Assembly: GCF_003480915.1 (NCBI RefSeq)
Contig: NZ_QUKD01000001.1
Coordinates: 806,001 to 870,000 of the forward strand
Reading direction: 5' to 3'
Source: Parabacteroides sp. TM07-1AC
GTDB lineage: Bacteria > Bacteroidota > Bacteroidia > Bacteroidales > Tannerellaceae
Length of the DNA stretch: 64,000 nucleotides
In this document: in pieces, positions 45,808-64,000 of the stretch
Numbering within the stretch: the stretch's first letter is position 1
Layout: every line of letters starts with the position of its first letter
The notes under the pieces: model-generated
What the model was told of the DNA's origin: nothing
Database searches by the model: none
Seen by the model: the letters and a program-made list of their open reading frames with translations, nothing else
Made by a program: the position numbers and the translations under genes

Positions 45808-45832
45808 ATTATTTGTATTTACCTTTTATCAT

Positions 45833-45848
45833 TCAAAATATATGCCAA
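45833..45848 (-). promoter_or_regulatory. Sigma-54-like promoter A
   Basis: On the minus strand TGGCAT (45847-45842), 5 bp, then TTGA (45836-45833). The -24 GG and -12 G are at sigma-54 spacing; the usual C after the -12 G is A. The start codon is 25 bp downstream. Confidence 0.7.
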
Positions 45849-45900
45849 AAAGTTATTTAGCTATATTTCAACTATTTATGCAAACAAGGCAAAACAACAA

Positions 45901-45938
45901 TGTCTAATAATTAGACACTTATGTATAATTATTAGACA
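45901..45938. promoter_or_regulatory. Paired 17-bp dyads, activator-site candidate A
   Basis: TGTCTAATAATTAGACA (45901-45917) is a perfect dyad. TGTATAATTATTAGACA (45922-45938) differs at one half-site base. Centres are 21 bp apart, two helical turns. The pair lies 53 bp upstream of the sigma-54-like element. Confidence 0.75.
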
Positions 45939-45962
45939 TTGAAACAAATAAAAGAAGCAGTG

Positions 45963-48338
45963 TTATTCAGACTTTATGCTCTCAACCGGATTAGAGTTGG
46001 CTACATGCCAGTTCTGGAAAGTGACCGTAACGAAAGTAATAACAGAGATAATAACAAAAGCCAGCAGGAATACCCACCAATACATTGGTGTACGGTAAGC
46101 GAAGTTTTCCAACCAACGGTACATTCCATAAAAAGCGACCGGAGTAGCCAGCACAAAACAAGCGGTAAGGATGATCAGGTAGCTTCTGTTGAACATGACC
46201 AGTATCTGGGAGGTAGACGATCCCAACACTTTACGGACAGCCACCTCTTTCCGGCGGTACTCGCTCTCGAATACAACCAGGCCGAATACACCGACAATGG
46301 AGATAAAGATTGCAATAACGCTGAACAGGGTGATCAGGTTGCTGATCTTCAATTCCCTTTCGTATGTCTGCTGCAGGATCTCGTCATAGAATGTAGTTTT
46401 GAAAGGATAAATCGGATCTATCTTTGTTAAACAGGCTCGCACATGTTCCATGGCAGCCCGCAGGTCGCTGCCCGCTTTCACTTTTACGTAAGCGGCAGAA
46501 TAATATTTACTGTCGACTTCCTGTCCCCATCTGTATTTACCCCATACATAAAAGGTCATCGGCGACACTTCATTTCGGAAAGAAGCGAATTTGACGTTCG
46601 AAATAAAACCGACGATCTCATCGCCATCGATCTTCTCTCCCAGTTCCAGATTATACATCTCCCGGGCTTTCTCATTAAAAATATAGCTCCCGTTTTCTTT
46701 CAAATCATCTTCGGGGCGGAAATCACGACCGTCTGTTATCTCGATTCCCATGACACGCAGGAAAGAGGGAGAAACAGGGATACACTGGAAATTGATATCC
46801 TGGTCTTTGTATATACGTCCCCATCCCATATAAAAGTCACGGCTGGACAGAACCTGTTCCGCATAAGTAATATCTTCTATTCCCGAGAATGACTTCACCT
46901 CGCTGGTCAGGACTTCCTGGTTTTTATTGACTTTACCGTTCAATTCAACCACGATCAGTTCGTCTTTATCATATCCCAAGGGGGTATTTTGCATATACCG
47001 GTTCTGTAAATACATGAACAGAGAACTGATGATCAGGATAAATGAAGCGACAAACTGGATACTTATCAGTGCACTTCGAAGTACCCGCCCTTTCGGAGAC
47101 AAACCAAAACTGCCTTTCAACACCAACGCCGGAGGAAAAGAAGTGATATAACAAGCCGGATAAATACCCGCTAATACACCTACCGCCACAGCTAAAGCAG
47201 CTGTAGTCATAATGATACCCGACTGTGCCGAAAAAGACATGTCAGCATCTACCAAAGATGCGACAAAAGTCTGCCCGGCAATAAATAACAAACCCAGCGA
47301 AATAAGATAAGCCACGATACTCACAATGACAGCTTCTCCCAACAAACTCGTCCGGAGCACGCTATCGGGACTACCCAACACTTTCTGCGTATTGATACTC
47401 TTGATACGCATCGGGGTCAGAGCGGTACTGAAATTAGTAAAGTTAATACCGGCTATCAATAAGATGACAAAAGCGATCGCAAACAGTACATGCATCGTCT
47501 GCCGGCTGGCTTTCGGCATGGAATCGAAAGAGACATTCGTCAGGAAATGTAACTTAGGCAGCGGTGTCATCATCAGCTCGATGCCGTCTTTCTCCCACTT
47601 GAAATCTTTTCCGAATTGCTGGGAGGCATCGAAATTCTTTTTGAAGTTTTCTTTGACAACTTCTATGTTGGAAGGATCATCCAGACGGAAGAAAAAGAAA
47701 TAATTCTGGTTGCCGTACTCATTGTAATTTTCTTTATCGGACATTCTCCGGTAAATAATATTCCTGACAGACGAGTTACGGGGGAAGTCTTTAAAGACAC
47801 CGCTGATCGTAGCCAATGTATTTTCGGACTCCGCGCCCATCAAGCGTTTACCTATAGCCGATTCATTTCCGAACAGGCGGCGCGCCATACTTTCAGGGAT
47901 TATAGCTGTTTCCGGTTGATCGAGTGCTGTCTCATTCCCTTCTACCATATCAAAATGGAATACACGGGTAATCCCGGCTGTCGTGTTTACAACGGGGTCC
48001 TTGAAATTCTGCCTTTCGCCGCCTTGGTCCACGCTATAAAACAACTCGGAATTCCAGGAAGACATAATCATTCCGGCTTTTACATGCGGGGATGATTCTG
48101 TAAATCCTCTTGCAAAAGGACGGCTGATAACAGCACTCATGCTACCTTGAAAATCCATATCCATCCGATAAATCGAATTGGCTTCCGGCTGGCAGGAGTC
48201 GAAATAATTGTCGTAATTTACCTGCATCATGATCACCATAAAAGCGGTAAAAGCGATGCTTAATCCCAACACATTCAGCAGTGTCGCCATTTTAAAACGG
48301 CGAAGCACACTGATAAAGTTTCTAAAAAGAGTTTTCAT
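45963..48338 (-). CDS. MacB/FtsX-type ABC transporter permease, subfamily A (copy 2)
   Basis: This 791-residue permease has the same eight-segment plan as copy 1. It starts MKTLFRNFISVLRRFKMATLLN with TM1 about 19-39, and ends FQNWHVANSNPVESIKSE. Loops LKGSFGLSPKGRVLR and RRKEVAVRKVLGSS should contact the ATPase. It is nearer to the copies at 50995 and 53547 (shared MVIMMQVNYD and KASRQTMHVL-type segments) than to copy 1. Its 89-bp upstream gap has only a small hairpin and no sigma-54-like box, so it is probably co-transcribed with the gene at 48428-50785. No clear terminator follows; read-through into copy 1 is possible. Confidence 0.9.
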   Translation of the reverse strand: MKTLFRNFISVLRRFKMATLLNVLGLSIAFTAFMVIMMQVNYDNYFDSCQPEANSIYRMDMDFQGSMSAVISRPFARGFTESSPHVKAGMIMSSWNSELFYSVDQGGERQNFKDPVVNTTAGITRVFHFDMVEGNETALDQPETAIIPESMARRLFGNESAIGKRLMGAESENTLATISGVFKDFPRNSSVRNIIYRRMSDKENYNEYGNQNYFFFFRLDDPSNIEVVKENFKKNFDASQQFGKDFKWEKDGIELMMTPLPKLHFLTNVSFDSMPKASRQTMHVLFAIAFVILLIAGINFTNFSTALTPMRIKSINTQKVLGSPDSVLRTSLLGEAVIVSIVAYLISLGLLFIAGQTFVASLVDADMSFSAQSGIIMTTAALAVAVGVLAGIYPACYITSFPPALVLKGSFGLSPKGRVLRSALISIQFVASFILIISSLFMYLQNRYMQNTPLGYDKDELIVVELNGKVNKNQEVLTSEVKSFSGIEDITYAEQVLSSRDFYMGWGRIYKDQDINFQCIPVSPSFLRVMGIEITDGRDFRPEDDLKENGSYIFNEKAREMYNLELGEKIDGDEIVGFISNVKFASFRNEVSPMTFYVWGKYRWGQEVDSKYYSAAYVKVKAGSDLRAAMEHVRACLTKIDPIYPFKTTFYDEILQQTYERELKISNLITLFSVIAIFISIVGVFGLVVFESEYRRKEVAVRKVLGSSTSQILVMFNRSYLIILTACFVLATPVAFYGMYRWLENFAYRTPMYWWVFLLAFVIISVITFVTVTFQNWHVANSNPVESIKSE

Positions 48339-48363
48339 ATCGATTAATTATTATTTCGATTTA

Positions 48364-48386
48364 AGGTTGTTCCCACAAACAACTTT
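48364..48386 (-). other. Small hairpin between two permease genes
   Basis: AAGTTGTT pairs with AACAACCT (minus strand, one G-U) around a short GC-rich loop. It is followed by TAAATC, not a T-run, so it is more likely a processing or stability stem than a terminator. Confidence 0.35.
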
Positions 48387-48427
48387 ATTATAAAAAACGT
48401 AATAATTTTACAGAGGTTGCATGATTC

Positions 48428-50785
48428 TCATTCTGTTTTTATACTTTCTACCGGATTTTCGCTGGCTGTACTCCAATTTTGGAACGAAACAATCAGGATC
48501 GTGATAACTGAAACAAAAATAAAGGCAATTGCATACACCCACCAATACAAAGGTATCTTATAGGCAAAATATGACAGCCACCGGTTCATTGCAAAATAAG
48601 CAACAGGTATCGACAGGATAAAACAAATTACCAAAATACGCGCATATACTTTATTGAACATGATCAATATCTGTGAGGTAGTTGCACCATGTACTTTTCG
48701 GAGACCTATTTCTTTTCTCTTATACTCACTTTCGAAGATCACTAAGCCCAAAACCCCTACTATCGAAATAAAAACAGCTACCAGACTGAACAAAGAAATC
48801 AGCCAGCCTATACTCAACTCACGTTTATAAAGATTATTCAGGATCGTATCATAAAACGATACCTCGACCGGAAAATCCTTGTCTACCGAAGTAAACGCTT
48901 TTCCAATAGAGGCAATGGCTTCGCGGATATTGGCTCCGGCTTTTATCTTTATATAGGCATATCTCGGATGAAAATCTTTTTCAGCCGGTACATAAAATGC
49001 CATCGGTTCGACAGTGGTACGGAAAGAAGCATACTTTACATCATCTATAAAACCGGCGATCACGGCAGGAGGTACTTCAACATAAGCATTTCCTGTAATA
49101 TATTCACCTGCCACCAGGTCATACTGTAACCTGGCTGTTTCATTAAAGATATAAGCTCCTCCTGCCGATGCTGTATCTTCCTGATAAAAAGCACGACCGG
49201 ATATAACCGGAATATTCATTACCTGAAGGAAATTAGGATCAACTGTGAATAATTTAAACGTTAGAATATTATTTCTGTAGCCCCGTCCAAAAGTAGAATA
49301 TTGATCACCTCCTGACAATAAATCTTCGGCAAAAGCCACCTCTTGTATAGACGACTCATTCTTTAACTGGCTTTCCAATGTTCCTGTATTTTTTATCAAC
49401 TTCCCGCTTAACTCAACAATAGCAACCTGATCTTTATTAAAGCCCAAAGAAGAAGAAACCATATAATGATTCTGCAGATAAATAAACAAGGCAGCTATGA
49501 TCAATACAAAAGAGATGACAAACTGGAAAGAAATAAGAAGACTTCTTAATTTTCTTCCGGCAGGAGTCAACCCGTATGAACCTTTCAACACCAATGCCGG
49601 AGAAAAAGAAGTGATACGCCAGGCAGGATATACCCCCGCTAAAACTCCCACTGTTATGGCCAATATCCCCGTCAATGCCAACAAAGGAATATTGGAAGCC
49701 AGCGACATGTCTCCACTTATCATATCTGCAAGCCAGGTATTCGCCATTCCTCTGACAATAAACAGCGAAATAACAAAAGAAACCAAACAAATCATTACTG
49801 CCTCTACCAGCATGGCACAACGTAATATCCTATCGGAACCTCCCAGTATTTTCTGCGTATTAATACTACGGACACGTATTGGAACTAATGCATTGCTGAA
49901 GTTTGTAAAATTGATCCCGGCAATAAACACTATCAATAGAGCCACAGTGAACAGAATCAAGACCAATGTACGATTACCTTTATCTTTCAATGAATCGAAC
50001 TGAGAATCCGCTTCATAATAAATATCTGTTAATTGGGTAAGCCTTACATCACGCATTTCCCAATCATACTCTTGCCTGTTTAAATGTTTTTTGAAATTAG
50101 CTATTATCTGATCTTTTTGGTTAGGATCATCCAATAAAACATACAACTGATAACCATTAGCATTCCAGTTATCCTGATCTACTTTCCCATTGATTCCTTT
50201 ATACACTGCATTCTGTATCACAGAATTTGCTGGAAAATCTTTATATACGCCACCGACTGTAAATGATGAATTATCGGTCATCAACAGTTTACCGACAGCC
50301 TGATCTTCTCCAAAAAACTTTTGGGCCTGACTCTTTGAAATCAGAACAGTACCCGGATTCTCTACACTCTCAGCATTACCCTCCAGCATTTGGAAATCAA
50401 AAATAGCGGCATATTCCGGAGTCATACCGTTCACTGTACACCAAAAGCCAGCATCGTCATTATTTCCTGTTTCAGCCTTTAAAGCCAGTCGAGCTCCCCA
50501 AGAATTAAGTAATGCTCCTTTCTCTATATGGGGAGACGATTGAATAAAAGCATTGGCAAAAGGAGGAGATACAACTACCTGATTTCCCCAATCCGGAGTA
50601 TAAAGTCCTACCCTGAAGATTCGTTCCGCATTTTTCTGATACCTGTCGAATCCCCAGTCATATTGCAGCTGGATCATTAAAATTATAAAAGCTGCAAAGG
50701 CAACACTAAGCCCCAATACATTTAATAGAGTTGCCACCTTAAACCGACGAGCTACTCCCAACAAATTCCTGATAATTGTTTTCAT
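48428..50785 (-). CDS. MacB/FtsX-type ABC transporter permease, subfamily A (copy 3)
   Basis: This 785-residue permease shares the eight-segment plan (TM1 about 19-38, KVATLLNVLGLSVAFAAFIIL) and the loops LKGSYGLTPAGRKLR and KRKEIGLRKVHGAT. It is the most divergent subfamily A copy and visibly more AT-rich than its neighbours, which may mean a separate origin. Its upstream 209 bp hold a sigma-54-like element, paired dyads, and between them the terminator of the preceding gene. The predicted 5' leader is about 70 nt, longer than for the other copies. No ATPase gene is linked here. Confidence 0.9.
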   Translation of the reverse strand: MKTIIRNLLGVARRFKVATLLNVLGLSVAFAAFIILMIQLQYDWGFDRYQKNAERIFRVGLYTPDWGNQVVVSPPFANAFIQSSPHIEKGALLNSWGARLALKAETGNNDDAGFWCTVNGMTPEYAAIFDFQMLEGNAESVENPGTVLISKSQAQKFFGEDQAVGKLLMTDNSSFTVGGVYKDFPANSVIQNAVYKGINGKVDQDNWNANGYQLYVLLDDPNQKDQIIANFKKHLNRQEYDWEMRDVRLTQLTDIYYEADSQFDSLKDKGNRTLVLILFTVALLIVFIAGINFTNFSNALVPIRVRSINTQKILGGSDRILRCAMLVEAVMICLVSFVISLFIVRGMANTWLADMISGDMSLASNIPLLALTGILAITVGVLAGVYPAWRITSFSPALVLKGSYGLTPAGRKLRSLLISFQFVISFVLIIAALFIYLQNHYMVSSSLGFNKDQVAIVELSGKLIKNTGTLESQLKNESSIQEVAFAEDLLSGGDQYSTFGRGYRNNILTFKLFTVDPNFLQVMNIPVISGRAFYQEDTASAGGAYIFNETARLQYDLVAGEYITGNAYVEVPPAVIAGFIDDVKYASFRTTVEPMAFYVPAEKDFHPRYAYIKIKAGANIREAIASIGKAFTSVDKDFPVEVSFYDTILNNLYKRELSIGWLISLFSLVAVFISIVGVLGLVIFESEYKRKEIGLRKVHGATTSQILIMFNKVYARILVICFILSIPVAYFAMNRWLSYFAYKIPLYWWVYAIAFIFVSVITILIVSFQNWSTASENPVESIKTE

Positions 50786-50868
50786 AATCGTATCGAATTA
50801 ACGTTATAATCTGAATGATATATCCTCTTATGCTGTGCTATCCGTTATATCATTTTAGTTAATTCCAC

Positions 50869-50884
50869 TCAAATAATGTGCCAA
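50869..50884 (-). promoter_or_regulatory. Sigma-54-like promoter B
   Basis: On the minus strand TGGCAC (50883-50878), 5 bp, then TTGA (50872-50869). It lies 83 bp before the ATG at 50785. Confidence 0.7.
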
Positions 50885-50898
50885 AGACATAAATATGT

Positions 50899-50930
50899 AA
50901 AAAACAAGGCATTGCTTGCGCAACGCCTTG
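50899..50930 (-). terminator. Terminator of the permease gene ending at 50995
   Basis: CAAGGCGTTGC and GCAATGCCTTG (minus strand, one mismatch) form an 11-bp stem followed by six T. It lies between the dyads and the sigma-54-like promoter of the next gene. Confidence 0.8.
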
Positions 50931-50937
50931 CCGGAGG

Positions 50938-50975
50938 TGTCCAATATTTAGACACAGGTGTATAATTATTAGACA
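50938..50975. promoter_or_regulatory. Paired 17-bp dyads, activator-site candidate B
   Basis: TGTCCAATATTTAGACA (50938-50954) and TGTATAATTATTAGACA (50959-50975), centres 21 bp apart; the second is identical to the second dyad of region A. The pair is 54 bp upstream of the sigma-54-like element. Confidence 0.75.
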
Positions 50976-50994
50976 AAACAAACCATGAATCTGT

Positions 50995-53385
50995 CTAATT
51001 ATCTTTTATGCTATATACCGGATTTTCATTGGCTGTCCGCCAGTTCTGAAAAGTCACTGTCAGGATCGTGATAAAGAAAATCAGAGCGAAAGACAAGGCG
51101 AATACCCACCAGTAAACCGGAGTTTTATAAGCAAAGTTTTCCAGCCATTTATTGACGGCATAATAGGCCGCCGGAGCTGCCAGCACAAAACAAACTGCCA
51201 GAATCCGTATGTATGTTTTATTGAACATGATCAGGATTTGAGAAGTAGTCGAACCCAACACCTTACGGACACCTATTTCCTTCCGGCGATACTGGCTGTC
51301 GAACACGACCAGACCGAAAACCCCGACCATCGAGATAAAGACAGCGATCAGGCTGAACAGGGTAATCAATGCACCCAGGTTTGTCTCCTTCTCATACAAA
51401 TTATTCAGTACATCATCAAAGAAGCGGACATTAAAAGGATAATCCGATTGGATTTCACTCAACACCTTTTTTACATGCTCCATAGCAGCCAGCTTGTCCG
51501 TTCCGGCCCCCACACGGATGTAGCCAAAGGTGGATTGTTCGTTACGGCTGGTTCCGGGTACATAAAAGGCCATCGGCGTAATCTCCATCCGGAAAGAGGC
51601 CGCTTTAATATCCGGGCAGAAACCAACTATTTCCGCTCCGTAGATTTTATCACCCAACTGAATATCGTAGGCTTTCCGGGCTGATTCGTTGAAAACGTAG
51701 ACACCCTCTGCCGTCAAAGCATCTTCGGGCCGGAAGTCACGTCCTTCACTGACCGGAATACCTAATACCTGCAAGAAAGAGGGATCGACCGGCAGACATT
51801 GATACTGGATATATTTACCATTCAACTCACGTCCCCAGGTCGAATACTGGTCCTGTCCCGACAACTGAAATCCTGCTGCAGTCACATCCTCGATACCGGA
51901 GAAAGACTTCAGACGATTCTTGAAAGAATCCTTATTTTTCATAACTTTAGCAGTCAGGTCGGTTACGATAATTTCATCTTTGTCATATCCCAGGGAACTT
52001 GTCCGCATGTAGTTGTTTTGCATATACATAAACATGGCCCCGATGATCAAAGCAAACGAAGCGATGAACTGTACGCTGATCAATACATTCCGCAGCAACC
52101 GTCCTTTAGGAGAAAGTCCGAAACTACCCTTCAACACCAGGGCTGGCGAGAAAGAGGTAATATAGTAAGCCGGATAAAGTCCTGCCAACAAACCAAGCAA
52201 GATGGCAAGCACGCCGGTTACGCTAATCAATACCGGATGAGCCGTCAACGAGAGATCAGCTCCGACCAATGCCTTGAGTGGAGTATCAGCAGCCAGATAA
52301 ACAGCCACCAGTGCCAATATAAATGCGATGAAACTGATACCGACCGCTTCCATCAATAGGGAGAAACGCAAGGTACCATCGGAGCTTCCCAATACTTTCT
52401 GTGTATTGATGCTTTTGATACGCATCGGCGTAAGTGCCGTACTGAAATTGGTGAAGTTTATTCCTGCAATAAGTATAATCACAAAGGCGATAGCCATAAG
52501 CACTAACAGCGTCTGCCGGCTCGTTTTGGGAGCCATATCGAAGGCTACATCCGTTACGTAATGCAGTTCCGGCAATGGGGTCAACTGGAAATTCACAGTT
52601 TTGTTTCCCCACATATTTTTCTCCAGATCGTTTTTCTTGTAATAATCCAGAAACTCGCTGACCAGGTTTTCAGCCGATGCAGGACTGTCCAGAAGCAGAT
52701 AGGCATTATAACTGGAGTTTCCCCACTCATGCAATCCTTCTTTATCATCTATTTTCAGATAGACAGCATTCTGAAGGATACCGTTCACGGGAAAATCGCG
52801 GTAAACCCCTCCTACCGTATAATCGATCTCGGCAATGGTAAACATTCCCGAAAAGCGTCCTTGTGTATCTGCCGCTTTCATGTGACGTCCGACAGCAAAC
52901 TCCGTACCGAATATCTTCTGTGCCATGCTGGCCGGAATCAGTATCTTCTCGGGATCTTCCAGAGCCTTTGCCGAACCATCCAACATATCGAAAGTAAACA
53001 CATCGGCAAATGAAGAATAGACCGGCAAATTCGGCTCCATATAGCTGACCCGCTCTCCTGTGCCCACATCGGCCAGAAAAACCGTTTGGCTGTACATCGG
53101 ATAAGTCAGCGCACCGGCAACAATATGCGGTGAGAAATTGAAAAACGCATCCGCCAACGGCCTGGAGAGAACAGCTTGTAAGCCATCATCATCGCCCCAC
53201 TTCATTTCCAGCCGGTAAATCCGGTTGGCCTCTTTATGGAATTTATCGAAATTCCTGTCATAATCGACCTGCATCATGATTACCATAAAGGCTGCAAAAG
53301 CAATGCTCAGTCCCAATACATTCAACAGCGTCGCCATTTTAAACCGGCGCAATACGCTTAACAAGTTTCTAATAATTGTCTTCAT
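50995..53385 (-). CDS. MacB/FtsX-type ABC transporter permease, subfamily A (copy 4)
   Basis: This 796-residue permease has TM1 about 19-39 (MATLLNVLGLSIAFAAFMVI), a MacB-core domain to about 285, four central segments, a second periplasmic domain and three C-terminal segments, ending FQNWRTANENPVYSIKDN. It is a close paralogue of the next gene (53547-55934), and the similarity runs past the stop codon into the 3' flank, so the pair arose by a fairly recent tandem duplication. It has its own sigma-54-like promoter and dyads and its own terminator, so it is probably a single-gene unit. Confidence 0.9.
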   Translation of the reverse strand: MKTIIRNLLSVLRRFKMATLLNVLGLSIAFAAFMVIMMQVDYDRNFDKFHKEANRIYRLEMKWGDDDGLQAVLSRPLADAFFNFSPHIVAGALTYPMYSQTVFLADVGTGERVSYMEPNLPVYSSFADVFTFDMLDGSAKALEDPEKILIPASMAQKIFGTEFAVGRHMKAADTQGRFSGMFTIAEIDYTVGGVYRDFPVNGILQNAVYLKIDDKEGLHEWGNSSYNAYLLLDSPASAENLVSEFLDYYKKNDLEKNMWGNKTVNFQLTPLPELHYVTDVAFDMAPKTSRQTLLVLMAIAFVIILIAGINFTNFSTALTPMRIKSINTQKVLGSSDGTLRFSLLMEAVGISFIAFILALVAVYLAADTPLKALVGADLSLTAHPVLISVTGVLAILLGLLAGLYPAYYITSFSPALVLKGSFGLSPKGRLLRNVLISVQFIASFALIIGAMFMYMQNNYMRTSSLGYDKDEIIVTDLTAKVMKNKDSFKNRLKSFSGIEDVTAAGFQLSGQDQYSTWGRELNGKYIQYQCLPVDPSFLQVLGIPVSEGRDFRPEDALTAEGVYVFNESARKAYDIQLGDKIYGAEIVGFCPDIKAASFRMEITPMAFYVPGTSRNEQSTFGYIRVGAGTDKLAAMEHVKKVLSEIQSDYPFNVRFFDDVLNNLYEKETNLGALITLFSLIAVFISMVGVFGLVVFDSQYRRKEIGVRKVLGSTTSQILIMFNKTYIRILAVCFVLAAPAAYYAVNKWLENFAYKTPVYWWVFALSFALIFFITILTVTFQNWRTANENPVYSIKDN

Positions 53386-53417
53386 ATCTATTAGTTCATT
53401 TCTTTCTGGCCAATATA

Positions 53418-53433
53418 ATTCAAATACTGTGCC
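53418..53433 (-). promoter_or_regulatory. Sigma-54-like promoter C
   Basis: On the minus strand TGGCAC (53432-53427), 5 bp, then TTGA (53421-53418). It lies 32 bp before the ATG at 53385. Confidence 0.7.
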
Positions 53434-53454
53434 AAAAGAGATAAACCAATAATA

Positions 53455-53480
53455 AACAAGGCGTTATAAATATAACGCCT
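53455..53480 (-). terminator. Terminator of the permease gene ending at 53547
   Basis: CAAGGCGTTATA and TATAACGCCTTG form a perfect 12-bp stem with a 2-nt loop, followed on the minus strand by TTTATTATTGG. It shares the outer stem sequence with the terminator at 50899-50930. Confidence 0.75.
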
Positions 53481-53487
53481 TGCCGTA

Positions 53488-53525
53488 TATGTCTAATATT
53501 TGGACACTGATGTATAATAATTAGA
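53488..53525. promoter_or_regulatory. Paired 17-bp dyads, activator-site candidate C
   Basis: TGTCTAATATTTGGACA (53488-53504) and TGTATAATAATTAGACA (53509-53525), centres 21 bp apart, 55 bp upstream of the sigma-54-like element. Confidence 0.75.
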
Positions 53526-53546
53526 CAAAACAAACCATGAATATGC

Positions 53547-55934: not shown

Positions 55935-55962
55935 TTCTTTGTGTTGTTTATATATGGCTAAC

Positions 55963-58305
55963 TTAATTATCTTTTATATTATTCACCGGATTGGAAGTAG
56001 CCGCCTGGTAGCTCTGTACCAATACGGTAAAGAACGAGATGAACAGACAGAATACACCCGCTGCCGCATAAATCCAGGGAGACAGCTCGATTCGATACGA
56101 ATAATCCGAAAGCCACCCATTCATAAAATACCAGATTACCGGTATGGCGATGATAAAGGCGATTGCCACATAGGTAAGGAACGCTTTTACCAGCCGGACA
56201 AGTACCTGCGCATTTGTAGAACCGAAGACTTTACGTACTGCTATCTCGGAAGAACGCTGTTGGATAAAATAGGTTGACATCGCCAGCAATCCCAGTAAAG
56301 AGATCAGGATTGCAATCATGGCAAAGATCGATACGATCTTCAAGGTCCTTTGCTGGGCGGCAAACGACCGCTCTACCTGCTCGTTAATGAACATTCCCAT
56401 AAATTCCATTCCCGTATATTTCTCGTAAACAATATCTATCTCTTTACGGGCAGCAAACGGATCCCCTTTCACCTCTACAATGATATTGCGCGGATTCATA
56501 TCTTCCCGGTTCGAACAAAGTATCACAAGTCCCGGAAGTTTTTGCATCAGGATATTATTCATCTGGAAATCCTGAACGATACCGGCCAATGGCGTATCGA
56601 ACGCAGCCCTGTGCTTGAACGAGGCAGCATCTTCCGGCAGTTCCAGAGCTTTCATAAACTCTTCAGAGAGATAGTATTTGACCGATCCGGCGACATGATT
56701 GTCACGCAGTATCTTAAAGCCCAGAATATCGAAATAGGTCTGATCGCCCCGAAACTCTTGTGAGCTGATACTCTTATTGTCGTAACGGCCACTGAAGTTC
56801 ATACCCATAGTGAAAGGAGTTCCTTCCGCCAGTCCGACCCGGCTGACACACGCCAGTTGTTCCAGTTCGTTTGCCAGGGTATAGCTGCTTTTCTGATCAG
56901 GCAACTCTCGTGCATAGATATCGAGCACATTTACCGTATTATATCCTAACGGAGCATTTATCAGATACCTGATCTGCAAAAACATAGTAAGCGAGGCAGC
57001 CACCAGGCAGATTGTTATCAGATTCTGGAAAATGATAAAGAACTTGCTAAACACCATTTTCGTCTGTTTACGGAACGTACCCCGTACCACTTCGATCGGC
57101 TTCGCGTTCGATATCACGATGGCAGGCAGCAACCCGGCAATAAATCCGACCAGGACGATCAGACAAATGACGATAATACCATTCACCGGCGTGATCATCT
57201 CGGTGATCTCTATCTTTTTCTGCAACAGGTCGCCGGCATAAGAAGCAAAGAAAAAAGCAAGGAATAAACCGACTACAAAAGAAATAGCCGTCAGCAAGGT
57301 CGACTCCATGATCAGGCGGGTAAATAGCTCCTTTCGCGAAGAGCCCAGCAAGCGGCGGGTAGCCATCTCTTTTGCCCGGAATCCCGTCTGTGCCACCGTC
57401 AGGTTGATATAATTGATAACGGCAAACAGCAGGATCAGCAAGCCGACCGAAAGCAGAATGACCACAAACTTCCAGTCTCCCTTTTCTATTGTAACAGCTC
57501 CGAATGATCCCTCCGGTTCCCAGAAATACAACTTATTCAGCGGGATAAATACAACTTCTGTAGAAAAGCCTCTTTCATATATCCAGAAAAAAGTATTGAA
57601 CCAGTCTCTTACCTCTTCTGATTTGGAAGCAATATCAGTACCTTTACGCTCCATCACAAAGACGTTCACAACACCGGCACTATTATAATCGTCAAACATA
57701 TTCTGTCCTACCGCTTTGATATTCTCGACCTGGAACAGAATATCCTGATCGGGAATGACCGAATGACGAATATTTTCCATCACTCCATTGACCACCAGTG
57801 TCAACTCATCATTGATACGGATCGTTTTACCCATCGGGTCTTCTTTACCAAAGAACTTATTGGCAAAAGACTCGGAGATCACCGCATAGTTTTTGGCGGC
57901 CAATGCCTGTACCCGGTTCCCCTGTATCAACGGAACATTGAAAAAGTCGAAGAATGTCGTATCGGCCAGCATCAGATTGGCTGTCAGCGTTTCATTTCCA
58001 CGTTGAATCAAGGTATTGTCAAATATCCGGCACAAAACATGACAAACTTTCTCTATCTCCGGATAACGTTCTTCCAAACGGTATCCGATCTGGTAAGCTG
58101 ATCCGATATCCTCGCCATCACTTACAGCATAAATACGGGCTGCATTTTCATTTCCGCGGTCGGTCGACAACTCGCCGACCACGTAGGTTGCAATCAGGAT
58201 CACAAACATCAGCGAGACGGACAGACCGAACAGGTCGATCGCCGTATACCCTTTGTTTCGTCCCAGGAAATTAAAGAAGGACTTAAAATTCAATACATTG
58301 TTCAT
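55963..58305 (-). CDS. MacB/FtsX-type ABC transporter permease, subfamily B (copy 6)
   Basis: This 780-residue permease belongs to a second subfamily with a different start (MNNVLNFKSFFNFLGRNKGY) and TM1 at about 20-43 (LFGLSVSLMFVILIATYVVG). The central loop is KEMATRRLLGSSRKELFTRL, the later one SSEIAVRKVFGSTNAQVLVR, and the end FQ-type tail is replaced by VQSYQAATSNPVNNIKDN. Eight membrane segments are again predicted. It is a close paralogue of the next gene. A 96-bp gap upstream holds a hairpin but no clear promoter. A mixed operon of A and B types suggests that hetero-pairing of permeases around an ATPase dimer is possible. Confidence 0.9.
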   Translation of the reverse strand: MNNVLNFKSFFNFLGRNKGYTAIDLFGLSVSLMFVILIATYVVGELSTDRGNENAARIYAVSDGEDIGSAYQIGYRLEERYPEIEKVCHVLCRIFDNTLIQRGNETLTANLMLADTTFFDFFNVPLIQGNRVQALAAKNYAVISESFANKFFGKEDPMGKTIRINDELTLVVNGVMENIRHSVIPDQDILFQVENIKAVGQNMFDDYNSAGVVNVFVMERKGTDIASKSEEVRDWFNTFFWIYERGFSTEVVFIPLNKLYFWEPEGSFGAVTIEKGDWKFVVILLSVGLLILLFAVINYINLTVAQTGFRAKEMATRRLLGSSRKELFTRLIMESTLLTAISFVVGLFLAFFFASYAGDLLQKKIEITEMITPVNGIIVICLIVLVGFIAGLLPAIVISNAKPIEVVRGTFRKQTKMVFSKFFIIFQNLITICLVAASLTMFLQIRYLINAPLGYNTVNVLDIYARELPDQKSSYTLANELEQLACVSRVGLAEGTPFTMGMNFSGRYDNKSISSQEFRGDQTYFDILGFKILRDNHVAGSVKYYLSEEFMKALELPEDAASFKHRAAFDTPLAGIVQDFQMNNILMQKLPGLVILCSNREDMNPRNIIVEVKGDPFAARKEIDIVYEKYTGMEFMGMFINEQVERSFAAQQRTLKIVSIFAMIAILISLLGLLAMSTYFIQQRSSEIAVRKVFGSTNAQVLVRLVKAFLTYVAIAFIIAIPVIWYFMNGWLSDYSYRIELSPWIYAAAGVFCLFISFFTVLVQSYQAATSNPVNNIKDN

Positions 58306-58384
58306 TGTGGTGTTACTCTATATGTTACTACTAATTCATTAGCTCTATATAATATATAAAAGGTTTCGGTTGTTTCGGTTAAAA

Positions 58385-58410
58385 GATAATCAGGCAAAAG
58401 CCTAATTATC
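58385..58410 (-). terminator. Hairpin overlapping the stop codon of a permease gene
   Basis: GATAATTAGGC pairs with GCCTGATTATC (minus strand, one G-U) around TTTT, followed by TTTTAACC. The stem includes the TAG stop of the gene at 58402. It may attenuate transcription into the next two genes. Confidence 0.55.
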
Positions 58411-60750
58411 TTTTATATTTTCTACCGGATTGGCTGTTGCCGCCTGATAACTCTGTATAAACACAGTTACAAACGAGACAATCAGACAGAACATTCCGGC
58501 AACAACATAAATCCAGGGGGAAAGCTCGATCCGATAGGAATAATCGGTCAGCCATCCGTTCATAAAATGCCAGATCAACGGTATAGCGATGATAAAAGCA
58601 ATCCCCACATAGGTCAGGAAGGCTTTCACCAACCGGATCAGTACTTGTGCATTGGTCGAACCGAATACCTTGCGCACTGCTATTTCAGACGAACGCTGCT
58701 GGATAAAGTAAGTCGACATGGCCAGCAACCCCAACAACGAGATCAGGATCGCGATACCGGCAAAGGTCATAACGATTGTCAAAGTTCTTTTCTGAACCGT
58801 AAACGATTCTTCGATCTGTTCATCCATGAACTTACCAGTAAAGTCCAAACCGGTCAATTTTTTATAAGTGGCAGCCACTTCCCGGCGGGCAGTAAACGGA
58901 TCACCATTCACTTCTACGATGATATTATGAGGACGATCGAGTTCCTCTTTACTTTCGGTGAGAATCAGAACGACCGGAGAGTTCTTTTGTATTATATTAC
59001 GTAACTGGAAATCCTTTACAATACCGGCAACAGGATGTTTTCCCCAGGCGCTGAAATCAAAATCCGTAGCGTCTTCCTTCAATCCCAGAGCTTTTACCGA
59101 ACTTTCGGCAAGAAAATATTTATCCGGATCGGCTACATGGTTATCACGCAGGTATTCAAATCCCAAAATATCACTATATTCTTTATTACAACGAATGATC
59201 TGGAAAGGAATCGTCTTATCATCGTAACGGGCATTATAATTCATTCCCATATTGAAAGGAGTACCTTGTCCTAATCCTACCCGGTTGACGCTACCCAACT
59301 GTTTCAACTCACTCACCAGAGTATTACAGGATTGATTCTCCGGCAATTCATCTCCTTTTATATCGATAATATTGACTGAATTATATCCTAACGGAGCATT
59401 GATCAGATGCTTTACCTGCAAAAACATGGTAACAGAAGCTGCAATCAGACAAATCGTGATCGTATTCTGAAAAACAATAAAGAACTTGCTGAATACCATC
59501 TTCGTCTGTTTACGGAACGTACCCCGCACCACTTCGATCGGTTTTGCATTCGAGATAACGATTGCCGGTAACAAACCGGCTATAAATCCGATCAGGGCGA
59601 TCAGCAGTATCACAATCATACCATTCAACGGAGTGATCATTTCAACCAGATCTACTTTCTTCTGTAACAGATCACTCACAAAAGGAGCAAAGAAGAAAGC
59701 AAGCAACAAACCGACTAAGAAAGAAATAGTTGTCAACAATGTCGATTCTATGATCAAGCGGGAAAACAATTCTTTCCTCGAGGAACCCAGCAAACGGCGG
59801 GTGGCCATTTCTTTTGCCCTGAAACCGGTCTGTGCCACTGTCAGGTTGATGTAATTAATGACGGCAAACAACAAAATAAGCAAACCTACCGACAAGAGGA
59901 TCATCACAAACTGCCAGTTGCCTCTTTCTATCGCATAAAATCCATACGGATTGGTCTGTTCCCAAAAATATAACTCTGTCAGCGGAATGAAGCTAAGTCC
60001 CTTTACAGATCCATTCATATATGCCGGTACAAAGGCATTGAACCAATCCATGATATCCTTCGACCGGGAAGTAATATCTGCACCTTCCTGTTCCATCACA
60101 AAGACATTGGTCATTCCATAACTGTTGTAGTTAGCAATCCAACCTTCAGGAATTAAGGTATTGATATTTTCGATCCTGAACAGGATATCCTGATCCGGGA
60201 TAACGGAGTTCCGGATATCCTTCATCACACCATTCACCATCAGCGACAGTTTATCATTGATACGGATCGTTTTCCCCATCGGGTCTTCATTTCCAAAAAA
60301 CTTATTCGCAAAAGATTCGGAGATCACGGCATAGTTCTTTGCCGCCAATGCCTGCTCTTTACTTCCCTGTACCAACGGGAAATTGAAAAATTCGAAAAAA
60401 GTCGCATCGGCAAGCATCATATTTGCCGTTACATTATTCTCCCCGTTCCGGATCGGAGTATTTTCAAAGACACGGGTCATTGTATGACAGACTTTTTCAA
60501 TCTCCGGATAATGTTCCTCCAGACGAGTACCCAACGGATAAGCCGCACCGCTCGTTTGACCATCCGTCAAAACGTAGATACGGTCGGCATGCTCATGGTA
60601 ACGGTCGGTCGACAACTCACCGACCACATAGGTTGCGATCAAAATCACAAACATCAGCGAGACAGACAAGCCGAATAGGTCGATGGCAGTATACCCCTTG
60701 TTGCGTCCCAGGAACTTAAAGAATGATTTGAAATTTAAAATATTACTCAT
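58402..60750 (-). CDS. MacB/FtsX-type ABC transporter permease, subfamily B (copy 7)
   Basis: This 782-residue permease is the closest relative of copy 6: the first 50 residues and the last 120 are nearly the same, while the two periplasmic domains (about 45-285 and 440-660) differ more. That pattern fits a shared ATPase interface with diverged ligand or partner sites. It starts 19 bp after the stop of copy 8, so the two are co-transcribed from the sigma-54-like promoter upstream of 63142. A hairpin overlaps its stop codon. Confidence 0.9.
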   Translation of the reverse strand: MSNILNFKSFFKFLGRNKGYTAIDLFGLSVSLMFVILIATYVVGELSTDRYHEHADRIYVLTDGQTSGAAYPLGTRLEEHYPEIEKVCHTMTRVFENTPIRNGENNVTANMMLADATFFEFFNFPLVQGSKEQALAAKNYAVISESFANKFFGNEDPMGKTIRINDKLSLMVNGVMKDIRNSVIPDQDILFRIENINTLIPEGWIANYNSYGMTNVFVMEQEGADITSRSKDIMDWFNAFVPAYMNGSVKGLSFIPLTELYFWEQTNPYGFYAIERGNWQFVMILLSVGLLILLFAVINYINLTVAQTGFRAKEMATRRLLGSSRKELFSRLIIESTLLTTISFLVGLLLAFFFAPFVSDLLQKKVDLVEMITPLNGMIVILLIALIGFIAGLLPAIVISNAKPIEVVRGTFRKQTKMVFSKFFIVFQNTITICLIAASVTMFLQVKHLINAPLGYNSVNIIDIKGDELPENQSCNTLVSELKQLGSVNRVGLGQGTPFNMGMNYNARYDDKTIPFQIIRCNKEYSDILGFEYLRDNHVADPDKYFLAESSVKALGLKEDATDFDFSAWGKHPVAGIVKDFQLRNIIQKNSPVVLILTESKEELDRPHNIIVEVNGDPFTARREVAATYKKLTGLDFTGKFMDEQIEESFTVQKRTLTIVMTFAGIAILISLLGLLAMSTYFIQQRSSEIAVRKVFGSTNAQVLIRLVKAFLTYVGIAFIIAIPLIWHFMNGWLTDYSYRIELSPWIYVVAGMFCLIVSFVTVFIQSYQAATANPVENIKDN

Positions 60751-60769
60751 AATATCGATACTAAATTAG

Positions 60770-63142
60770 TTATTCACTTTTAACACTATTCACTGGATTC
60801 TCATTCGCTGCCTTCCAGTTCTGGAAAGTAACCGTCAGCATCGTGATCGCTGCCACAACGGCAAAAGCCAAAACAAACACCCACCAAAAGACCGGTGTCT
60901 TGTCGGAAAAGTTTTCCAGCCATTTATGTACTCCGTAATAAGCAAACGGGGCTGCTATGACAAAACATATACTGACAACCTTCAGGTAGATTTTATTGAA
61001 CATATTCAATATCTCCTGTACCGTCGCACCGAACACTTTCCGAACGCCGATCTCTTTCCGTCTGTATTGTGTCTCAAAGACTACCAAACCGAATACGCCC
61101 ACGATCGACAGAACGATAGCCAACAGGCTGAACAAGGTGATCATCTTTTTCAGATATTGTTCTTTATGATAGAGATTATTGAATACCGTATCGTAAAACT
61201 CGACTTCGAAAGGATAAGCCGGATCAATATCGGTAATCACCCGGTGGATATGGGCTACCGCTTCTTCCACGTTTGTTCCGACTTTCAGACGGATATAAGA
61301 AATAGTCAAACCACTGAATCTTTCACTAACCCTGAACATCAACGGTTTGTTAGACGAACGCAGAGAAGAAACCTTTATATTGTCGATGAAGCCGGCGATA
61401 CTACCTGTACCCATCCAGCTCTTTTCCAATGGATATCCCGGTTCCATATCAGGAACAACATCCAGCATCCGCTTGGTAAAGATACAAGCATAAGTAGAAT
61501 CACTTTGTGCATCCGAACGGCTAAAATCACGTCCGCTGGTGACGGGAATACCCATCACATTCAGAAAGTTCCATGAAACATCGATCACTTCGCTATTAAA
61601 TTCTTTATTATTGCAACGGAAATAATTGGCAGAATAGACATCCGAAGCTCCTACTATGGTATTGGCAAATCCTACATCCTCGATACCGGCATACTCTTTG
61701 AGCCGGTTTACCAATAGATCGCCGGACTTCGTGACTATATCCTGACTCAATGTCACCATCGCTACCTGGTCTTTATCGAATCCCAACTTGTAAGAACGCA
61801 TATAGTTATTCTGGATCTGTATAAAAGAAGAACCGATAATCAAACCGATGGAAACAACATACTGGAAACCGATCAAGGCCGTACGCAACTTCCGTCCTGA
61901 AGCAGACAGGCCGAAACTACCCTTCAATACCAGTGCCGGTTGGAAAGAGGTCATATACCATGCCGGATACAGACCGGCTACCAACCCCAATAATACAGAA
62001 ATACCCAACACCATAAATAACAGCGGTATATAATGCAGTAAATTCGTATCCGCTTCGACGAATGATAAAACTTCCGTCCTGTTCAATATCCAGGTCAATA
62101 AAAAGGCCAACAGGCAGGCAAATACACAAATAGATACCGCTTCGGCTACCAAACTTGCCCGCAAACTTGCTGTCGAACTGCCCAATACCTTCTGGGTATT
62201 GATACTTTTTATCCGCATCGGAGCCAGCGAAGTACTGAAATTCGTAAAATTGATCCCGGCAATGACGATGACCAGTAAAGCGATCAATACCAATAACCGC
62301 ATCGTATCGACATTTCCGGTCTTAATAAAATCATCCAACTGACCAGGCATATAATAAATGTCAGTGATAGGTATCAGTTGCAAGCGGGTTTCTTTATTGA
62401 CATTATATTTAGCAAAATCGAATGTACTATTGAAGTTATCCTCTACTACTTGGCGAGACTCAGGTGAATCGAGCAATAAATATCCCATAAAGTTCTGAGA
62501 AAGCCAATCATCTTCAAAGTGTTTATTCATTCGGGCATAAATCCCGTTTTCCATCTGCGAGTTTTCCGGAAAATCTTTATAGACAGCTCCGACGGTAAAG
62601 TTCATTTCATCTATATAAAACATTCTATCTTTCGAACGAATACTTTTGCCTATAGCCGATTCCTTGCCAAACATCCGTTTAGCCATACTTTCAGATATCA
62701 TTACCTTTTCCGGATCTTCCAGGCAAGTTGCCATTCCTTCCACCAAAGTCGGTTCGAATACTTTGGGAAAATCCGGATAGCAAGGGATAAATAGTTCTTT
62801 AAAACCTCTTTCATCATTTCCCTCTCCTACATTCACATAGGTTTTACTACTAAAAGAATTCAGCAATGTATAGGCTTCAATATGCGGAGACGAAGTAAAA
62901 GCAGCATTCGCTAACGCCTGGGGAATCACTGATGCATAAATATCTCCTTCGCCGTGATTCATATCTACCCGGCAAATACGGGACGCGGTCGGATAACACC
63001 GGTCGAAAGTCCGTTCATATTGAACCTGCATCATAATCACCAGAAAAGCAGTCAAGGCGACAGTCAGCCCCACCACATTCAGAAAAGACGCCATCTTGAA
63101 GCGGCGCAGTACGTTCACAAAGTTTCGTAATATTGTTTTCAT
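60770..63142 (-). CDS. MacB/FtsX-type ABC transporter permease, subfamily A (copy 8)
   Basis: This 790-residue permease starts MKTILRNFVNVLRRFKMASFLN, with TM1 about 19-39 and the same eight-segment plan; the loops are LKGSFGLSASGRKLR and RRKEIGVRKVFGAT, and the end is FQNWKAANENPVNSVKSE. It is the sister of copy 1 at the other end of the array. It is the first gene of a unit with copies 7, 6 and 5, behind a sigma-54-like promoter and paired dyads. Its function is unknown beyond the family role in ATP-driven export or envelope transfer. Confidence 0.9.
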   Translation of the reverse strand: MKTILRNFVNVLRRFKMASFLNVVGLTVALTAFLVIMMQVQYERTFDRCYPTASRICRVDMNHGEGDIYASVIPQALANAAFTSSPHIEAYTLLNSFSSKTYVNVGEGNDERGFKELFIPCYPDFPKVFEPTLVEGMATCLEDPEKVMISESMAKRMFGKESAIGKSIRSKDRMFYIDEMNFTVGAVYKDFPENSQMENGIYARMNKHFEDDWLSQNFMGYLLLDSPESRQVVEDNFNSTFDFAKYNVNKETRLQLIPITDIYYMPGQLDDFIKTGNVDTMRLLVLIALLVIVIAGINFTNFSTSLAPMRIKSINTQKVLGSSTASLRASLVAEAVSICVFACLLAFLLTWILNRTEVLSFVEADTNLLHYIPLLFMVLGISVLLGLVAGLYPAWYMTSFQPALVLKGSFGLSASGRKLRTALIGFQYVVSIGLIIGSSFIQIQNNYMRSYKLGFDKDQVAMVTLSQDIVTKSGDLLVNRLKEYAGIEDVGFANTIVGASDVYSANYFRCNNKEFNSEVIDVSWNFLNVMGIPVTSGRDFSRSDAQSDSTYACIFTKRMLDVVPDMEPGYPLEKSWMGTGSIAGFIDNIKVSSLRSSNKPLMFRVSERFSGLTISYIRLKVGTNVEEAVAHIHRVITDIDPAYPFEVEFYDTVFNNLYHKEQYLKKMITLFSLLAIVLSIVGVFGLVVFETQYRRKEIGVRKVFGATVQEILNMFNKIYLKVVSICFVIAAPFAYYGVHKWLENFSDKTPVFWWVFVLAFAVVAAITMLTVTFQNWKAANENPVNSVKSE

Positions 63143-63187
63143 CTATACTAATGTTTTGTCTTCTATTCTTTTTACATATTTGACTAT

Positions 63188-63203
63188 TCAAATCGTATGC
63201 CAA
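63188..63203 (-). promoter_or_regulatory. Sigma-54-like promoter D
   Basis: On the minus strand TGGCAT (63202-63197), 5 bp, then TTGA (63191-63188). It lies 45 bp before the ATG at 63142. Confidence 0.7.
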
Positions 63204-63256
63204 ACTAGTAAATTACTGATAATCAAGTAAATAACCAATCATTCTTTTAATATCTA

Positions 63257-63294
63257 TGTCAAATAATTGGACAGTTCTGTCTAGTTTTTTGACA
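63257..63294. promoter_or_regulatory. Paired 17-bp dyads, activator-site candidate D
   Basis: TGTCAAATAATTGGACA (63257-63273) and TGTCTAGTTTTTTGACA (63278-63294), centres 21 bp apart, 54 bp upstream of the sigma-54-like element. These are the least perfect of the four pairs. Confidence 0.65.
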
Positions 63295-63848: not shown

Positions 63849-64000
63849 TTACTTATTCGATACACTATCTATCGGGTTGGCATTAGCAGCTTTGTAACTT
63901 TGGAAAAATACCGTTACAAGTGCAATGACGAGACAGAATATACCGGAGACAATAAAGATTAGCGGATTCAGGGAGATCCGGTATGAATAATCGGACAGCC
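63849..64000 (-). CDS. MacB/FtsX-type ABC transporter permease, subfamily B (copy 9, partial)
   Basis: Only the last 50 codons are in the window. The translation runs from LSDYSYRISLNPLIFIVSG through one membrane segment to YKAANANPIDSVSNK and a TAA. LSDYSYRI and the QSY-KAA-NANP tail place it with copies 6 and 7 in subfamily B. The rest lies beyond 64000. Candidate terminator hairpins for it are 400 bp downstream at 63404-63476, leaving an unusually long 3' region that includes the 22-bp repeats. Confidence 0.85.
   Translation of the reverse strand, partial: LSDYSYRISLNPLIFIVSGIFCLVIALVTVFFQSYKAANANPIDSVSNK

What the first reader, a model, noticed from the sequence alone, without database searches (positions are those of the whole stretch)
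45833..63294. Four matched sigma-54-like promoters with paired 17-bp activator dyads across the permease array
Upstream of the genes starting at 45807, 50785, 53385 and 63142 the minus strand reads TGGCA[CT]-N5-TTGA. In each case two dyads close to TGTCTAAT-N-ATTAGACA follow upstream, with centres exactly 21 bp apart. The gap from the -24 box to the first dyad is 53, 54, 55 and 54 bp. Such fixed geometry in four places means one regulatory module. By known precedent this is the layout of an NtrC-type enhancer-binding protein with sigma-54. The regulator is not in the window; I infer it lies past 64000 with a sensor kinase.
Basis: partly seen in the sequence, partly recalled or inferred. Interest (0 to 1): 0.85.

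Follow-up and report, generated by a model that had tools for sequence, protein, structure and literature searches.

The report
Sigma-54 switch for exporter gene array
Four copies of one genetic switch, of the kind worked by sigma-54 and an activator protein that binds upstream, appear to turn on a row of membrane exporter genes in a gut Parabacteroides, and the same switch with its likely activator recurs across the genus.

Summary
In detail: four sites, gaps 53/54/55/54 bp, dyad centres 21 bp apart in 4 of 4. The -24/-12 boxes alone are at chance level; the combination is far above it. The window is Parabacteroides close to P. faecis; the genes are eight MacB_PCD/FtsX permeases. The composite recurs in 28 of 38 genomes searched for the genus, 71 sites, 0 control hits. 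Of 64 sites read, 56 precede a permease, a TolC-type channel or the transporter ATPase. In P. goldsteinii, P. gordonii and G039 a response-regulator/AAA+/HTH_8 activator with a kinase sits at the upstream end of the array, three dyads beside its own gene. Activator (>=65% identity) and composite co-occur: 28 of 29 genomes with it, 0 of 9 without. Extra parts found: an IHF-like element 31-32 bp upstream of the -24 box in all four window sites; terminator-like hairpins between dyads and promoter at two; paralogous activators beside their own exporter sets with other dyads; a probable non-coding RNA behind the same switch in four genomes. The kind is known; our literature searches found no description of this operator, its activator or the RNA.

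The parts
45833..45847 (-). -24/-12 promoter, site 1 (TGGCATATATTTTGA), for gene 43447-45807
45866..45878 (-). IHF-like element (YAAN4TTGATW, 1 mismatch) at -31 from the -24 box, site 1
   Evidence: family register
45901..45917 (.). proximal activator dyad, site 1
45922..45938 (.). distal activator dyad, site 1
50869..50883 (-). -24/-12 promoter, site 2 (TGGCACATTATTTGA), for genes 48428-50785 and 45963-48338
50902..50914 (-). IHF-like element (1 mismatch) at -31, site 2, overlapping the hairpin's 3' arm
50903..50932 (-). intrinsic terminator-like hairpin (13 pairs), presumably of the upstream gene, between dyads and promoter of site 2
50938..50954 (.). proximal activator dyad, site 2
50959..50975 (.). 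distal activator dyad, site 2
53420..53434 (-). -24/-12 promoter, site 3 (TGGCACAGTATTTGA), for gene 50995-53385
53454..53466 (-). IHF-like element (1 mismatch) at -32, site 3, overlapping the hairpin's 3' arm
53455..53484 (-). intrinsic terminator-like hairpin (13 pairs) between dyads and promoter of site 3
53490..53506 (.). proximal activator dyad, site 3
53511..53527 (.). distal activator dyad, site 3
63188..63202 (-). -24/-12 promoter, site 4 (TGGCATACGATTTGA), for genes 60770-63142, 58402-60750, 55963-58305, 53547-55934
63221..63233 (-). IHF-like element (1 mismatch) at -31, site 4; an equal match lies at -47
63257..63273 (.). proximal activator dyad, site 4
63278..63294 (.). distal activator dyad, site 4
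43447..45807 (-). MacB_PCD/FtsX permease, 786 aa (own unit, inferred)
45963..48338 (-). MacB_PCD/FtsX permease, 791 aa (second gene of unit 2, inferred)
48428..50785 (-). MacB_PCD/FtsX permease, 785 aa (first gene of unit 2)
50995..53385 (-). MacB_PCD/FtsX permease, 796 aa (own unit, inferred)
53547..55934 (-). MacB_PCD/FtsX permease, 795 aa (unit 4, inferred)
55963..58305 (-). MacB_PCD/FtsX permease, 780 aa (unit 4, inferred)
58402..60750 (-). MacB_PCD/FtsX permease, 782 aa (unit 4, inferred)
60770..63142 (-). MacB_PCD/FtsX permease, 790 aa (first gene of unit 4)
63849..64000 (-). C-terminal end of a further protein, permease-like by eye (ends ...NPIDSVSNK), so the array seems to go on past the window; not searched
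   Evidence: sequence, frame

Best explanation
Each of the four sites is a sigma-54 promoter with a matched enhancer. Inferred mechanism: a histidine kinase phosphorylates a response-regulator/AAA+/HTH_8 activator (relative P0001 in P. goldsteinii). Dimers of it bind the two 17-bp dyads side by side on one helix face (21 bp, two turns), with the nearer dyad about 54 bp upstream of the -24 box. An IHF/HU-family protein bends the linker at the element 31-32 bp upstream of the -24 box, so that the activator touches sigma-54 RNA polymerase and opens the promoter by ATP hydrolysis. Four units carrying eight MacB/FtsX-type permeases are thus switched on together. In relatives the transporter ATPase and the TolC/HlyD operon carry the same address, and a dyad lies next to the activator's own gene, so the regulon is a whole tripartite ABC export system with many alternative permeases. 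Shown by sequence: boxes, dyads, spacing, conservation, gene content, gene order, co-occurrence. Inferred: binding, phosphorelay, bending, the signal (guess: envelope or antimicrobial-peptide stress) and the presence of the activator in the window's own genome.
For: Dyads far above chance and only at these places; exact geometry. Composite with both dyads in 28 of 38 genomes, 71 sites, 0 control; one-dyad form in 21 of 38, 62 sites, 0 control (totals recounted). In 49 of 51 strict sites a distal TGT...ACA dyad lies 21 bp away, in the other two it ends ACG; 34 of 44 have a gap of 55, the rest 53, 54 or 56. 56 of 64 sites precede a permease (33), TolC (17) or ATPase (6) gene (Pfam checks of the reference proteins; all 17 also match a Pfam-checked OEP protein). 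Activator plus kinase at the upstream end of the array with three dyads at the activator's own gene in P. goldsteinii, P. gordonii, G039. Activator (>=65%) and composite co-occur 28 of 29 against 0 of 9 (Fisher p 6e-8, lineages not independent). None of 20 paralogue neighbourhoods has such a 21-bp pair. Receiver, Sigma54_activat, HTH_8 domains. rpoN once in each of 3 relatives. IHF-like element: 28 of 51 linkers at <=1 mismatch against 4.9 expected from shuffles, 23 of them at two adjacent positions; all four window sites at those positions.
Against: No transcript, binding or mutant data. The window's own genome is not held, so its activator and rpoN are inferred. The -24/-12 match alone is at chance level in the window, and in three relatives a stricter box is only two- to fivefold above its control (20 against 7, 24 against 11, 10 against 2). 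Of 20 activator neighbourhoods fetched (12 of them from genomes that the strict pattern had missed), 17 show no 21-bp pair at the patterns used, so activator and targets are often unlinked. A 57% paralogue shares the helix letters SRQTLYNK, so cross-binding is possible. The pattern was shaped, and the 65% line drawn, after sites and identities in these genomes had been seen. Four of 64 sites precede genes that are not exporter parts by the test used.
Confidence: 0.87

Rival explanations
1. The dyads are operators of a repressor or one-component regulator (TetR/MarR/Fur type), and the promoter is an ordinary Bacteroidota sigma-70 promoter; the -24/-12 match is coincidence.
For: Symmetric 17-bp dyads are also typical of dimeric repressors (recalled); the -24/-12 pattern alone is at chance frequency in the window.
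Against: The dyads keep 53-56 bp from a TGGCAY-N5-TTTG box in dozens of loci, which puts their centres about 89 and 110 bp upstream of the expected start. No TTTG-N17-22-TANNTTTG match was found on the minus strand within 250 bp of the four sites. Genus-wide co-occurrence is with a sigma-54 activator.
Confidence: 0.05
2. The composite is right but the activator is a paralogue (for instance the 57% one), or several related activators share these sites.
For: The 57% paralogue has the same helix letters SRQTLYNK, and its own TolC-side promoter carries related dyads CGTCAAA-N3-TTTGACA.
Against: Those dyads are 23 bp apart with a 52-bp gap, the best or tied-best pair in 4 of 4 loci scored. The paralogue is listed in 7 of 38 genomes (a 56% hit in G011 has another helix, and is not counted), against 28 with the composite. 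The composite sits at the operon next to the P0001 gene, not next to the paralogue.
Confidence: 0.08
3. The sites are relics copied along with duplicated permease genes, not selected regulatory elements.
For: The permease genes are tandem paralogues, so upstream DNA could be copied with them.
Against: The same composite precedes unrelated genes (TolC, ATPase, a probable RNA) in diverged genomes, while the linker sequence changes except around the IHF-like positions and short TTG/TTA motifs. At sites 2 and 3 the linker holds a terminator-like hairpin, yet the geometry is kept.
Confidence: 0.02

Closest known systems
NtrC-type enhancer-binding protein / sigma-54 promoters with IHF (glnA, nifH type; recalled)
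   Same: Two activator dyads centred about 89 and 110 bp upstream, an IHF-like site between, -24/-12 box, response-regulator/AAA+/Fis-type HTH activator with a kinase.
   Different: Dyad TGTCTAAT-N-ATTAGACA, 21-bp spacing, loop GAFTDA instead of GAFTGA (listed among variants that keep activity in PMC4641369, passages seen), and export instead of nitrogen genes.
Predicted sigma-54 control of COG0577 (FtsX-like) permeases in Bacteroidia (PMC12316311, PLoS One 2025; passages seen)
   Same: Same sigma factor and same permease family in the same class; that paper calls it first evidence of the link.
   Different: In the passages seen it works from sigma-54 boxes and enrichment; the word Parabacteroides does not occur in its main text, and no activator operator, geometry, cognate activator, IHF-like element or RNA was seen there.
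MacAB-TolC-type tripartite ABC export systems
   Same: MacB_PCD/FtsX permease, HlyD-type adaptor, TolC-type channel, LolD-like ATPase.
   Different: The permeases have two FtsX stretches (8 of 8) and often two MacB_PCD stretches (5 of 8) and no ATPase domain; the ATPase is a separate gene; many permeases per ATPase. The one permease scanned against NCBIfam matches TIGR03434 (ADOP) and NF038008 (DarB) below their cut-offs.

Membership tests
sigma-54 (RpoN) promoter | TGGCAY-N5-TTGC-type box | tested here: met
   4 of 4 window sites TGGCAY-N5-TTGA; after TTTG the family has A 43%, C 39%. At the window sites the -12 GC is GA.
sigma-54 (RpoN) promoter | rpoN in the genome | tested here: met
   PF04552 once in each of 3 relatives; not testable for the window's own genome.
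sigma-54 (RpoN) promoter | transcription starts at the box and needs RpoN | not testable with these tools
   no transcript data
NtrC-type enhancer-binding protein | receiver + Sigma54_activat + Fis-type HTH | tested here: met
   P0001 of P. goldsteinii: PF00072, PF00158, PF02954 over cut-off; in relatives, not in the window's genome
NtrC-type enhancer-binding protein | GAFTGA loop | tested here: inconclusive
   GAFTDA in 29 and GSFTDA in 1 of 30 orthologue loci read. 43 of 45 distinct stretches found in all loci are GAFTDA or GSFTDA, 2 GSFTGA, so the variant is general here. PMC4641369 lists GAFTDA among variants that would keep activity.
NtrC-type enhancer-binding protein | cognate histidine kinase | tested here: met
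   HATPase_c protein directly downstream, P0002; P. goldsteinii by Pfam, others by length and start
NtrC-type enhancer-binding protein | binds the dyads | not testable with these tools
   only co-occurrence and gene order
IHF-assisted enhancer | IHF consensus between enhancer and -24 box at a fixed place | tested here: met
   consensus recalled; HU/IHF-family genes present; which protein binds is unknown
MacAB-TolC-type exporter | permease, adaptor, channel, ATPase | tested here: met
   permeases in the window; ATPase in P. faecis L001; ATPase, HlyD and OEP in P. goldsteinii and HlyD, OEP in Dysgonomonas. In the window only permeases are seen.

The most novel reading that the evidence does not exclude
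Parabacteroides runs a set of parallel, separately addressed sigma-54 circuits. Each pairs a kinase/activator with its own exporter set and its own enhancer code (dyad letters plus spacing, for example TGTCTAAT at 21 bp and CGTCAAA at 23 bp). An HU/IHF-family protein, in one circuit encoded next to the activator, bends the linker. In the P. goldsteinii group the first circuit also fires a roughly 170-nt non-coding RNA with two hairpins of near-identical tip (CTTGGCGA and TTTGGCGA), adding post-transcriptional control to the exporter response.
Probability: 0.45. Interest if true: 0.68.

Novelty: new member of a known kind. Interest (0 to 1): 0.55.

Why it matters
Sigma-54 circuits are worked out mostly in Pseudomonadota. 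Here is a compact, readable one in a common human gut genus: operator, spacing, promoter, likely activator and target genes can be named from sequence. It offers an explanation of how a long array of related permeases is expressed as one exporter response. It also gives a directly testable operator (two dyads 21 bp apart, about 54 bp from the -24 box) and a set of paralogous activators for studying how related circuits in one cell stay separate.

Tried and rejected
Repressor-operator reading: rejected for the fixed distance to the -24 box and the co-occurrence with a sigma-54 activator. Bacteroidota TTTG/TANNTTTG promoter: no match on the minus strand near the sites. Regulator inside the window: tblastn with the P. 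goldsteinii activator and kinase gave only one 26-residue match at E 0.23. Coding reading of the downstream RNA: the open frames differ between copies through 1-3 base indels, so a protein is unlikely, though a short peptide is not excluded (P. goldsteinii has an open frame of about 50 codons there, read by eye). No Rfam family reached its threshold; one chance microRNA match at E 0.31 (P. goldsteinii copy only). Composite outside the genus: 10 of 393 order genomes, 3 of them from the genus set, so it is mainly a Parabacteroides code. Literature searches (listings; open-licence papers only) showed no description of this operator, activator or RNA; passages were read in PMC12316311 and PMC4641369 only, and a term search of PMC3162934 found no mention of Bacteroidetes, ABC or FtsX. 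In one search the spacing search gave no convincing pair for the GTGCG, GTACG and CATTATCGGACA dyads seen by eye, so only the CGTCAAA type is claimed with a spacing. The first RNA alignment mixed strands and was redone.
Full report
What is there. On the minus strand each reads distal dyad, 4 bp, proximal dyad, 53-55 bp, TGGCAY-N5-TTGA, then a permease gene. The dyad occurs 8 times in the window at up to 3 mismatches, only here, against a mean of 0.32 in shuffles. The -24/-12 pattern by itself is at chance level; the combination carries the weight. The eight genes 43447-63142 are permeases with MacB_PCD and FtsX domains, which the promoters divide into four units of 1, 2, 1 and 4 genes (inferred from gene order and strand). 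The array seems to continue past 64000: the last 150 bases read as the end of another such protein (by eye).

Where it comes from. The first permease of the array has a 95% identical relative in Parabacteroides faecis (L001), then 83%, 75% and 61% in other Parabacteroides and 48% in a Dysgonomonas (5 loci found). No genome is held for the window itself.

Genus-wide test. With one dyad plus the box, 21 of 38 genomes searched for the genus have 62 sites; the same pattern read backwards has 0. With both dyads at exactly 21 bp and a looser box, 28 of 38 have 71 sites, control 0 (totals recounted). Among 393 order genomes drawn evenly, 10 match, 3 of them from the genus set. Of 44 distinct strict sites in the loci then held, 34 have a gap of 55, 4 of 54, 4 of 53, 2 of 56 (48-60 was allowed, though most loci had been found with 51-57). 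In 49 of 51 the distal dyad has TGT...ACA ends, in the other two it ends ACG. Downstream genes for 64 distinct sites in loci held at that time, the window's four included: 33 permease, 17 TolC-type, 6 ATPase, 4 other, 4 with no frame of 60 residues in reach. Of the last four, two are cut by the end of a locus and two are the RNA below. The reference proteins used for that sorting were checked by Pfam, and all 17 TolC-type proteins also match a Pfam-checked OEP protein.

The regulator. In P. gordonii, P. goldsteinii and G039 the minus-strand array ends upstream with permeases, a HlyD-type adaptor (416 aa) and a TolC-type channel (452 or 459 aa), with an ATPase gene (226 aa) within the array. 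Then, divergently, come an activator (450 aa) and a histidine kinase (438 aa), with three dyads in the intergenic region between channel and activator. In G039 the array is broken up by other genes and spreads over about 70 kb. The P. goldsteinii activator has receiver, Sigma54_activat and HTH_8 domains and a GAFTDA loop. An orthologue at 65% identity or more is listed in 29 of 38 genomes (in G023 in two pieces; the 65% line was drawn after seeing the list, where the next value is 61%). Of these, 28 have the composite; the exception, G034, has its activator on a 3.4-kb contig. Of the 9 genomes without it, none has the composite at that pattern. One of the nine, G010, has a 61% relative, and the permease behind its kinase carries a looser pair of the same dyads that the pattern does not match (L128, by eye). 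Related genomes are not independent, so the Fisher value (6e-8) is only indicative. Against a simple picture: in 17 of 20 activator neighbourhoods fetched, 12 of the 20 from genomes the strict pattern had missed, there is no 21-bp pair, so the activator is often far from its targets. In Dysgonomonas a related regulator and kinase sit beside the array, but no such dyad pair is seen there.

An IHF-like element. In the last 48 bases of the linker, YAAN4TTGATW (recalled consensus) fits 28 of 51 sites with at most one mismatch (shuffled linkers: 4.9 of 51), and 23 of these start 32 or 31 bp upstream of the -24 box. All four window sites, which are among the 51, have a one-mismatch match at 31 or 32; site 4 has an equal one at 47. 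At sites 2 and 3 this element falls in the 3' arm of a 13-pair terminator-like hairpin that fills much of the linker, so the previous gene's transcript should stop between the enhancer and the next promoter (inferred). HU/IHF-family matches number 43 to 60 per genome, some of them broken, and one such gene lies directly upstream of a paralogous activator gene in 3 of 3 genomes looked at. Which protein binds is unknown.

Parallel circuits. Counting strong PF00158 matches, 5 of 11 activators in P. goldsteinii and 6 of 12 in P. gordonii lie within 10 kb of a MacB_PCD gene, where 4.4-4.5% of the genome lies. Paralogous activators have other dyads at neighbouring promoters. The 57% paralogue has CGTCAAA-N3-TTTGACA-type pairs 23 bp apart with a 52-bp gap, best or tied best in 4 of 4 loci scored. 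Others seen by eye (GTGCG...CGCAC, GTACGATATCGTAC, CATTATCGGACA) were not confirmed by the spacing search. None of 20 paralogue neighbourhoods has the 21-bp TGT pair. P0001 and the 57% paralogue share the helix letters SRQTLYNK and a GTC-type half-site; the other paralogues read differ in helix letters and, by eye, in dyads. This suggests but does not prove a recognition code.

A probable RNA. One composite in P. goldsteinii, P. gordonii and G039 has no gene in reach. Downstream is a stretch of about 170 bases found in 4 of 38 genomes (those three and G023), with the composite upstream in 4 of 4. Aligned in one orientation it has 88% mean column identity with 1-3 base indels. It ends in a terminator-like hairpin and has two further hairpins with near-identical tips CTTGGCGA and TTTGGCGA (TTTGGTGA in G023); the P. 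goldsteinii pieces were folded, with part of each tip taken into the stem. In G039 a second sigma-54-like promoter with a different dyad (TGTCCATTAATGGACA) lies between composite and RNA. No Rfam family reached its threshold in the P. goldsteinii copy. Sigma-54 activators that control non-coding RNAs are listed for Desulfovibrio vulgaris (PMC4641369, passages). Whether the window's genome has this RNA is unknown.

What is known. PMC12316311 (passages) reports enrichment of predicted sigma-54 promoters at COG0577 permeases in Bacteroidia and calls this the first evidence of the link, so the sigma factor/permease link is in print. The operator, its geometry, the cognate activator, the IHF-like element and the RNA were not seen in the listings. 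Architecturally this is an ordinary NtrC-type enhancer promoter; what is unusual is its repetition across one exporter array and the parallel copies.

Noticed in passing
L043:16822-17000 (minus strand), L171, L172, L173: Probable roughly 170-nt non-coding RNA with two hairpins of near-identical tip directly downstream of the same sigma-54 composite, in 4 of 38 genomes.
   Followed up: partly
window:50903-50932 and 53455-53484: Strong terminator-like hairpins lie inside the enhancer-promoter linkers of sites 2 and 3 while the dyad-to-box distance and IHF-like place are kept.
   Followed up: partly
L132, L133, L134: An HU/IHF-family gene sits directly upstream of the 57% paralogous activator gene in three genomes.
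   Followed up: partly
L165 about 5191-5450 (minus strand): In G039 the RNA has a second sigma-54-like promoter (TGGCACAATCTTTGC) with another dyad, TGTCCATTAATGGACA.
   Followed up: no
L044:119-9527 and L043:17143-18537, P. goldsteinii: A second sigma-54 activator (with a 414-aa frame before it, probably its kinase, not scanned) near an ABC-2 exporter operon (OEP, ABC_tran, ABC2_membrane) that has its own sigma-54-like box, about 20 kb from the first.
   Followed up: no
window:5114-42748: The rest of the window looks like a glycan-use locus: SusD-like proteins, GH2 and GH31 enzymes, a sulfatase, FecR and an ECF sigma factor among the proteins scanned.
   Followed up: no
L068, L073: Two composites in other genomes precede genes that match no exporter reference, one with a TonB-receptor-like start and one lipoprotein-like (by eye).
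   Followed up: no
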